A model generated the notes under the pieces. It did not search any database and was not told where the DNA came from. It worked only from the letters and a program-made list of their open reading frames with translations. DNA of 35,472 nt, taken from the NCBI RefSeq assembly GCF_001870225.1, contig NZ_CP017675.1:2857708-2893179 (forward strand), written 5' to 3'. The stretch is from Gloeomargarita lithophora Alchichica-D10. Lineage in GTDB: Bacteria > Cyanobacteriota > Cyanobacteriia > Gloeomargaritales > Gloeomargaritaceae. The first letter of the stretch is position 1, and every line of letters begins with the position of its first letter. The position numbers were made by a program, and so were the translations under genes. This document shows, one piece after another, positions 16,448-17,346 of the stretch.

Positions 16448-16524
16448 TTAATTGCGGGTGCAACGGCGGCAGATGACTAGAAACTGAACCCCAACAGATT
16501 ACACCTGTCCCCTGCCACCCAATG

Positions 16525-16681
16525 TTAGCTGGCTGGGAACAAAACCGCTTCAGGCTTGGCACGGATCACCTGCTGGAGGGTGTAATCCAGTCTGTATCCA
16601 AAATCGTCTGGTCGCTCGAAACTCGCAGACATAATTGGCACGTTCTCGAATAGCCTGCTTGAGTTCATCGCTGATTGACAT
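16525..16681 (-). pseudogene. Truncated HNH-type endonuclease remnant joined to unrelated coding tail
   Basis: From ATG 16681 the frame reads MSISDELKQAIRERANYVCE, the typical opening of small cyanobacterial HNH endonucleases, which normally continue with a second Cys and the HNH core. Here the match ends after 20 residues and the frame stops at 16550. In another frame, about 16626-16525 encodes a clean but different tail (SFERPDDFGYRLDYTLQQV... ending LFPAS, then TAA) that I do not recognise. The junction near 16620 looks like a deletion or recombination joint. The start overlaps the end of the split antitoxin-like gene by 17 bases, a normal operon overlap. The remaining stretch 16448-16524 shows nothing. 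Confidence 0.5.
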
Positions 16682-17095
16682 TTTGAGCAGTAAGCATCGC
16701 ATTGATATGAGTAAAGATACGATCTAGTGGGACTTTATAAGTTTTAAGCCCTAAAACAGGCTCAAGCTCAAGCACGACAGGCAAAACACATCGACAAGGT
16801 AAAAATGGCTGGAACCCAGTCGCATCAAGAAAATATGCTGATCGAGGTAAAACAATTGCTGTGTCTAGGTCTGAGGCCGTTTAGGAGCCAGTTTCTCTCA
16901 AAGTCCCACTAGCTCTCCAATCGCATCCAATTCCGCAAGTTCATCAGGCGTGATCTGATCAGCTTTTTTCTTTTCTAGTAGGGTTTCCATTCGCAGTTGA
17001 AGAGATTCACTGAATTTGAATAAATGCCAATTGCTAACTTTTTCAAGTTGAATCTCATGGATGAGAGAAGACGGTTTATTAAGAGTTGTAATCAT
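16665..17095 (-). pseudogene. Small antitoxin-like gene split by a MITE
   Basis: The 5' part (17095 to about 16910) encodes MITTLNKPSSLIHEIQLEKV...KKADQITPDELAELDAIGEL. The frame then enters an inserted element and stops three codons later at 16898 (65 residues). Removing bases 16727-16909 plus one TA copy restores GAG-CTA-GAT and joins the frame seamlessly to DRIFTHINAMLTAQNVNQR and a TGA at 16665. The repaired protein would be about 82 residues. Its pairing with a downstream HNH-type gene resembles small cyanobacterial two-gene modules; the antitoxin label is inference from size and context. Confidence 0.65.
16727..16909. mobile_element. 183 bp MITE with GTGGGACTTT inverted ends and TA duplication
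   Basis: The element has perfect 10 bp terminal inverted repeats (GTGGGACTTT at 16727-16736, AAAGTCCCAC at 16900-16909) and is bounded by TA at 16725-16726 and 16910-16911. Excision with one TA restores the interrupted reading frame exactly. Size, TIRs and TA target fit a non-autonomous IS630/Tc1-mariner-type element. Short open frames inside show no transposase motif. Confidence 0.8.
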
Positions 17096-17110
17096 TTAGA
17101 CCTCATTGAA

Positions 17111-17200
17111 TTAAATTTTTGCAAACCAACCGACATCAACTTCTACTGACTCGATCATGGCGATCTTGACACCAAGCCCCAACGCTTTCAAGCGTGGGAC
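17111..17200 (-). pseudogene. C-terminal fragment of an unknown gene cut by a repeat
   Basis: Minus-strand bases 17200-17111 keep an open frame reading VPRLKALGLGVKIAMIESV and ending DVGWFAKI before TAA. It runs straight into the end of a MITE-like repeat at 17201, beyond which no matching N-terminus appears. It lies 15 bases upstream of the split antitoxin-like gene, so it was probably the gene before it in the same operon. I do not recognise the family. The fragment is short and could be chance. Confidence 0.35.
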
Positions 17201-17216
17201 TATAGCAATCCTATCT

Positions 17217-17239
17217 GATAGCTTGCGTGGCGTAGCCAT
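17217..17239. repeat. Short nested repeat, core GCGTGGCGTAGCCAT
   Basis: A 23 bp copy, GATAGCTT followed by the core, near the left end of the repeat at 17201-17343. It is nearly identical to the copy at 19949-19971, differing by one base (T to C). Confidence 0.7.
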
Positions 17240-17298
17240 AGAACCATACACCGCAGGTGCTTCTGGTACGGAGCCTACGCCCCTGCGACCTTTGTTCC

Positions 17299-17323
17299 CA
17301 TAGCGTTAGCGTGGCGTAGCCAT
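17299..17323. repeat. Short nested repeat, core GCGTGGCGTAGCCAT
   Basis: A 25 bp copy beginning CATAGCGTTA. It is inserted between a GTTC-type sequence and the repeat's right end, the same place as the copy at 370-394. Confidence 0.7.
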
Positions 17324-17346
17324 ACTCATTTAGGATGGCCGTATCC

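What the first reader, a model, noticed from the sequence alone, without database searches (positions are those of the whole stretch)
16665..17095. A 183 bp MITE cleanly splits a small antitoxin-like gene
Perfect 10 bp inverted repeats (GTGGGACTTT) bounded by TA on both sides interrupt a reading frame. Deleting the element plus one TA restores the frame exactly across GAG-CTA-GAT and gives a roughly 82-residue product that ends 17 bases inside a downstream HNH-type gene start. The insertion and its target duplication are seen directly. The 65-residue frame normally called here is therefore only the 5' half of a broken gene. If the gene was an antitoxin, its partner had to be lost too, and the adjacent HNH remnant is indeed truncated.
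Basis: partly seen in the sequence, partly recalled or inferred. Interest (0 to 1): 0.7.

Follow-up and report, generated by a model that had tools for sequence, protein, structure and literature searches.

The report
Mobile DNA splits a nuclease-partner gene
A short non-autonomous transposon, one of about 35 nearly identical copies in this cyanobacterial genome, has landed in and broken a small gene whose nuclease partner next door has also lost its core: an ordinary kind of event, here documented in full detail.

Summary
A miniature inverted-repeat element interrupts a minus-strand gene (17095 to 16665). Removing it restores an 81-aa frame; uninterrupted relatives up to 88% identical exist in other cyanobacteria, most followed by a full ~150-aa HNH endonuclease gene that overlaps it. 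The chromosome holds about 35 copies (31 with both exact ends 181 bp apart), all 97% or more identical to the window copy.

Three corrections. (1) The element is 181 bp with 9-bp ends (TGGGACTTT) and a 4-bp NTAN target duplication (CTAG here): left and right 4-mers agree in 28 of 32 copies (shuffles: mean 3.9, maximum 13). The tenth "repeat" base belongs to the duplication, so an IS630 (TA) parent is not supported. No transposase with these ends was found. (2) The HNH remnant is not simply truncated: an in-frame 321-bp internal deletion removes the HNH motif and keeps both ends. (3) "Antitoxin" is untested, but 62 of 63 full-length HNH genes of this clade have the small gene directly upstream, whereas the small gene often stands without HNH. 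This fits HNH depending on the small protein, as in toxin-antitoxin pairs.

Verdict: new member of a known kind (MITE); modest interest. The unstudied HNH/small-protein pair is the better lead.

The parts
16728..16908 (.). MITE proper, 181 bp, terminal inverted repeats TGGGACTTT / AAAGTCCCA (9 bp, perfect)
16724..16727 (.). target-site duplication, copy 1: CTAG
   Evidence: 28 of 32 copies have identical NTAN 4-mers on both sides
16909..16912 (.). target-site duplication, copy 2: CTAG
16913..17095 (-). 5' part of the interrupted small gene (first 61 codons, MITTLNKPSS...LDAIGE)
   Evidence: homologues L061-L068
16665..16724 (-). 3' part of the small gene (DRIFTHINAMLTAQNVNQR and stop); the Leu-62 codon at the joint lies in the duplicated CTAG
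16550..16681 (-). remnant of the HNH endonuclease gene, 43 codons plus stop: first about 20 residues joined in frame to the last about 23; 321 bp (107 codons) carrying the HNH motif deleted

Best explanation
A non-autonomous DNA transposon (MITE) with 9-bp inverted repeats was mobilised in trans by a transposase that makes 4-bp staggered cuts at NTAN sites. It spread in this lineage to about 35 copies and inserted at a CTAG in the 62nd codon of a small gene (A). Gap repair duplicated CTAG. The net 185-bp insertion breaks the frame and stops translation after 65 codons. A and the overlapping downstream HNH nuclease gene (B) form a two-gene module found on chromosomes and plasmids of many cyanobacteria. 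B lost its catalytic core here by a separate in-frame deletion of 321 bp. The module is therefore dead in this genome, which has no other copy of A or B above the search thresholds. Shown: insertion, duplication, copy number, intact homologues, gene order, deletion. Inferred: trans-mobilisation, timing, and that A restrains or otherwise supports B. The order of the two lesions is not established.
For: Copies in own genome at 97-100% identity; matching 4-mers flank 28 of 32 copies against a shuffled mean of 3.9 and maximum of 13. Removing other copies also restores frames, with Pfam domains running across the joint in four (photolyase, Methyltransf_30, N6_Mtase, integrase arm domain). No copy in the same-genus genome or 384 others at the sensitivity used, so the spread looks lineage-specific. 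A cousin on Chroococcidiopsis plasmid pCHRO.01 has the same ends and a CTAA duplication. Intact A at 88% identity with a full, overlapping HNH gene. HNH PF01844 at 2.3e-16 in the homologue. Deletion junction.
Against: No autonomous parent was found. The chromosome shows no other convincing pair of exact TGGGACTTT ends at IS spacing; one 2769-bp pair uses one end of a known MITE copy. Only three transposase families were searched, and some stretches of the genome read as N in the tool. Four of 32 copies lack matching 4-mers. The sister genome has no module at this place to show an empty site directly.
Confidence: 0.93

Rival explanations
1. The element is a derivative of an IS630/Tc1-mariner element with a 2-bp TA duplication and 10-bp ends.
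For: TA stands next to both ends at nearly all copies.
Against: The outermost base of the supposed 10-bp repeat varies from copy to copy and equals the base beyond the opposite TA. The three DDE_3 (IS630-type) loci in the genome have no pair of such ends.
Confidence: 0.07
2. A and HNH are a toxin-antitoxin module: HNH is a DNA-cutting toxin and A its antitoxin; the HNH core was lost first, and only then could A be broken by the MITE.
For: 62 of 63 full-length HNH genes of this clade have A directly upstream, while about half of 119 A genes have no intact HNH. Of 8 broken A genes only one stands next to an intact HNH (Fisher p about 0.02-0.04). The one HNH without an A hit has a truncated A upstream and lacks its own start. 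The pair occurs on conjugative and mobilizable plasmids.
Against: No toxicity data. A has no antitoxin domain match. The pattern also fits A being a chaperone, a targeting subunit or a regulator, or A having a function of its own. Loci are phylogenetically related, so the p-values are optimistic, and the lists were truncated.
Confidence: 0.5
3. The two lesions are unrelated decay of a dispensable accessory locus; A is not an antitoxin and the order of loss does not matter.
For: HNH decay beside an intact A is common (L064, L070, L072, L077, L078, L085, L086). A with internal stops beside broken HNH also occurs.
Against: Random decay should leave intact HNH beside broken A about as often; that is seen once or twice only.
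Confidence: 0.45

Closest known systems
Prokaryotic MITEs (reviewed in PMC10969869), for example Chunjie, Correia and cyanobacterial MITEs
   Same: Under 500 bp, terminal inverted repeats, target duplication, tens of copies, no transposase gene, insertions inside genes
   Different: New sequence family; the only relatives found are one copy on Chroococcidiopsis plasmid pCHRO.01 (69% identity) and a half copy in a Gloeocapsa MAG
IS5-type elements (target motif YTAR, PMC10359306)
   Same: 4-bp duplication centred on TA
   Different: Only 11 of 28 matched duplications fit YTAR; no IS5-family transposase with TGGGACTTT ends was found
IS630/Tc1-mariner
   Same: TA at the heart of the target
   Different: Those duplicate TA only (own knowledge); here four bases are duplicated
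HNH endonucleases (PF01844), including PtuB-like effectors
   Same: Homologues of the lost partner match PF01844 at 2.3e-16 and weakly match PtuB models
   Different: Paired with a small uncharacterised protein rather than PtuA; far below PtuB's curated cut-off

Membership tests
MITE | short, no transposase gene | tested here: met
   181 bp; no open frame long enough for a transposase
MITE | terminal inverted repeats | tested here: met
   9/9 bp TGGGACTTT; same ends in other copies
MITE | target-site duplication | tested here: met
   NTAN, 28 of 32 copies
MITE | many similar copies in the genome | tested here: met
   34 full-length or nearly full-length matches plus fragments at 97-100%
MITE | mobilised by a related autonomous element with the same ends | tested here: inconclusive
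   no such element found; three families searched and some stretches masked
IS630/Tc1-mariner derivative | 2-bp TA duplication with fixed element ends | tested here: not met
   the end base varies with the flank; 4-bp duplication
IS5-type derivative | YTAR 4-bp target | tested here: inconclusive
   4 bp, but only 11 of 28 are YTAR
Type II toxin-antitoxin | two small overlapping or abutting genes | tested here: met
   in most intact homologues the HNH start overlaps or abuts the end of A
Type II toxin-antitoxin | toxin rarely found without antitoxin | tested here: met
   62 of 63 full-length HNH genes have A directly upstream
Type II toxin-antitoxin | toxicity of one protein and neutralisation by the other | not testable with these tools
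   needs expression tests
HNH endonuclease (window remnant) | HNH motif present | tested here: not met
   motif lies in the deleted 107 codons; intact homologues have it

The most novel reading that the evidence does not exclude
The small protein plus HNH nuclease is an undescribed toxin-antitoxin or defence module of cyanobacteria, and this locus is a natural double knock-out that records the permitted order of loss (nuclease first, then partner).
Probability: 0.4. Interest if true: 0.55.

Novelty: new member of a known kind. Interest (0 to 1): 0.3.

Why it matters
The case corrects an annotation (a 65-aa frame that is part of a broken gene) and defines a transposon family that has broken several genes in one cyanobacterial chromosome and entered two CRISPR arrays. 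The survey points to a widespread, unnamed small-protein/HNH pair with a strongly one-sided dependence that a simple laboratory expression test could settle.

Tried and rejected
Autonomous parent: PF13358, PF13546 and PF01609 searched in the own genome; ends of the hits inspected; none match. Pairs of exact ends 0.5-5 kb apart: only chance pairs or pairs that use a MITE end. The extra left part of the composite copy at 1254592-1255073 turned out to be another interspersed repeat, not a transposase end. Element in viral contigs: none. The other hit of the genome scan, Candidatus Methylomirabilis L116, has no NTAN 4-mer before the end-like sequence and no second end, and was taken as chance. Empty site in the sister genome: the two flanks map to places 77 kb apart, so no empty site could be read. 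Papers naming this HNH pair: none found.

Full report
Observation. The repeat GTGGGACTTT is present only at 16727-16736 (+) and 16900-16909 (-) of the window, 0.02 matches expected, each bounded by TA. Joining the flanks yields an 81-residue frame on the minus strand from 17095 to 16665. The mechanical ORF list shows the 65-aa frame 16898-17095, whose last residues come from the element.

Copies. The chromosome in which the window lies (3,049,282 bases, one contig) holds 34 matches covering 183 or more of 187 query bases at 97-100% identity, plus fragments. The window copy equals the family consensus. 31 pairs of exact TGGGACTTT ends lie 181 bp apart.

Correct boundaries. In the aligned copies the supposed first base of the repeat is G, T, A or C, and it equals the base after the opposite TA. 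Taking the element as TGGGACTTT...AAAGTCCCA, 28 of 32 full copies have the same 4-mer NTAN on both sides; 100,000 shuffles of the right-hand 4-mers gave a mean of 3.9 and a maximum of 13. The duplication is therefore 4 bp and the element 181 bp. Here the duplicated CTAG is its own reverse complement, which lengthened the apparent inverted repeat to ten bases; 8 of 32 copies show this. An IS630-type TA duplication is thereby disfavoured. IS5 uses YTAR (PMC10359306), but only 11 of 28 matched duplications fit YTAR, so the parent family is left open.

Relatives of the element. None in the same-genus genome or 384 other genomes of the phylum when searched with the left 29 bases and three mismatches; the BLAST search of the same set gave only short matches of 29-42 bases outside the own genome. 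One cousin lies on Chroococcidiopsis thermalis PCC 7203 plasmid pCHRO.01, 69% identical, flanked by CTAA on both sides. A left half with CTAA before it lies in a Gloeocapsa MAG.

Impact of other copies. Removing the element and one duplication from other copies restores long frames. In four the Pfam domain crosses the joint: photolyase FAD domain (L005), Methyltransf_30 (L007), N6_Mtase (L021) and an integrase arm domain (L120). One copy sits inside a CRISPR repeat and another in a spacer of a second array.

The interrupted gene. Of 386 genomes of the phylum, 80 match the restored protein at E 0.001 or better; the best are 88% identical over 80 residues with no stop. In the closest relatives the gene overlaps the start of a roughly 150-aa HNH gene by 11-14 nt, with PF01844 at 2.3e-16. 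Among 37 inspected loci 29 have an HNH-family frame, whole or broken, starting within 60 nt. The window's HNH gene aligns to these at both ends, with 321 bp missing in frame between nucleotides 61 and 382 of the homologue. HNH genes are also internally deleted in L080, L084 and L085/L086, so this is a recurrent way of losing the nuclease.

Antitoxin-like? Searching both genes independently in the same genomes, 62 of 63 full-length HNH genes of the clade have the small gene directly upstream, but only 66 of 119 small genes have any HNH match of the clade next to them. The single HNH without a hit has a small-gene stump broken after about 45 codons and lacks its own start. One small gene with a premature stop stands before an intact HNH (L136, a draft assembly). 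This one-sidedness is what a toxin that needs its antitoxin would give. It also fits other forms of dependence, and the counts are not corrected for relatedness and come from truncated lists. The pair sits on several Nostocales plasmids. No paper found describes it.

Synthesis. The boundaries, the IS630 suggestion and the description of the HNH remnant needed correction. As a MITE insertion it is an ordinary kind of event, well documented here; the small-protein/HNH pair is the lead worth an experiment.

Noticed in passing
L019 1408-1862 (own genome, copy at 1396475-1396661): A copy of the element lies inside a CRISPR repeat (GTTTCAATCCTCATTCACTCCTAAGAATGAATGCAAT), duplicating its CTAA.
   Followed up: partly
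L028 1426-1734 (own genome, copy at 2204811-2204997): Another copy lies in a spacer of a second CRISPR array with a different repeat.
   Followed up: partly
window 17199-17340: Interspersed repeat (GTGGCGTAGCC...) with more than 30 matches in the same-genus genome G085.
   Followed up: no
window 16465-17344: The whole module is missing in the same-genus genome; its two flanks map about 77 kb apart there, so the module sits at a rearrangement or insertion point.
   Followed up: partly
L080, L084, L085, L086: Internal deletions of the HNH gene that keep both ends, as in the window; in frame in L084 and L085/L086 (probably one event), out of frame in L080.
   Followed up: partly
L020 1370-1851 (own genome 1254592-1255073): Composite 482-bp copy bounded by ATAA, containing another repeat family and a nested intact element with its own CTAT duplication.
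   Followed up: partly
L155: A 75% identical small gene near the end of an IMG/VR contig labelled viral, next to a TnpB-like gene; no full HNH frame in the held stretch.
   Followed up: no
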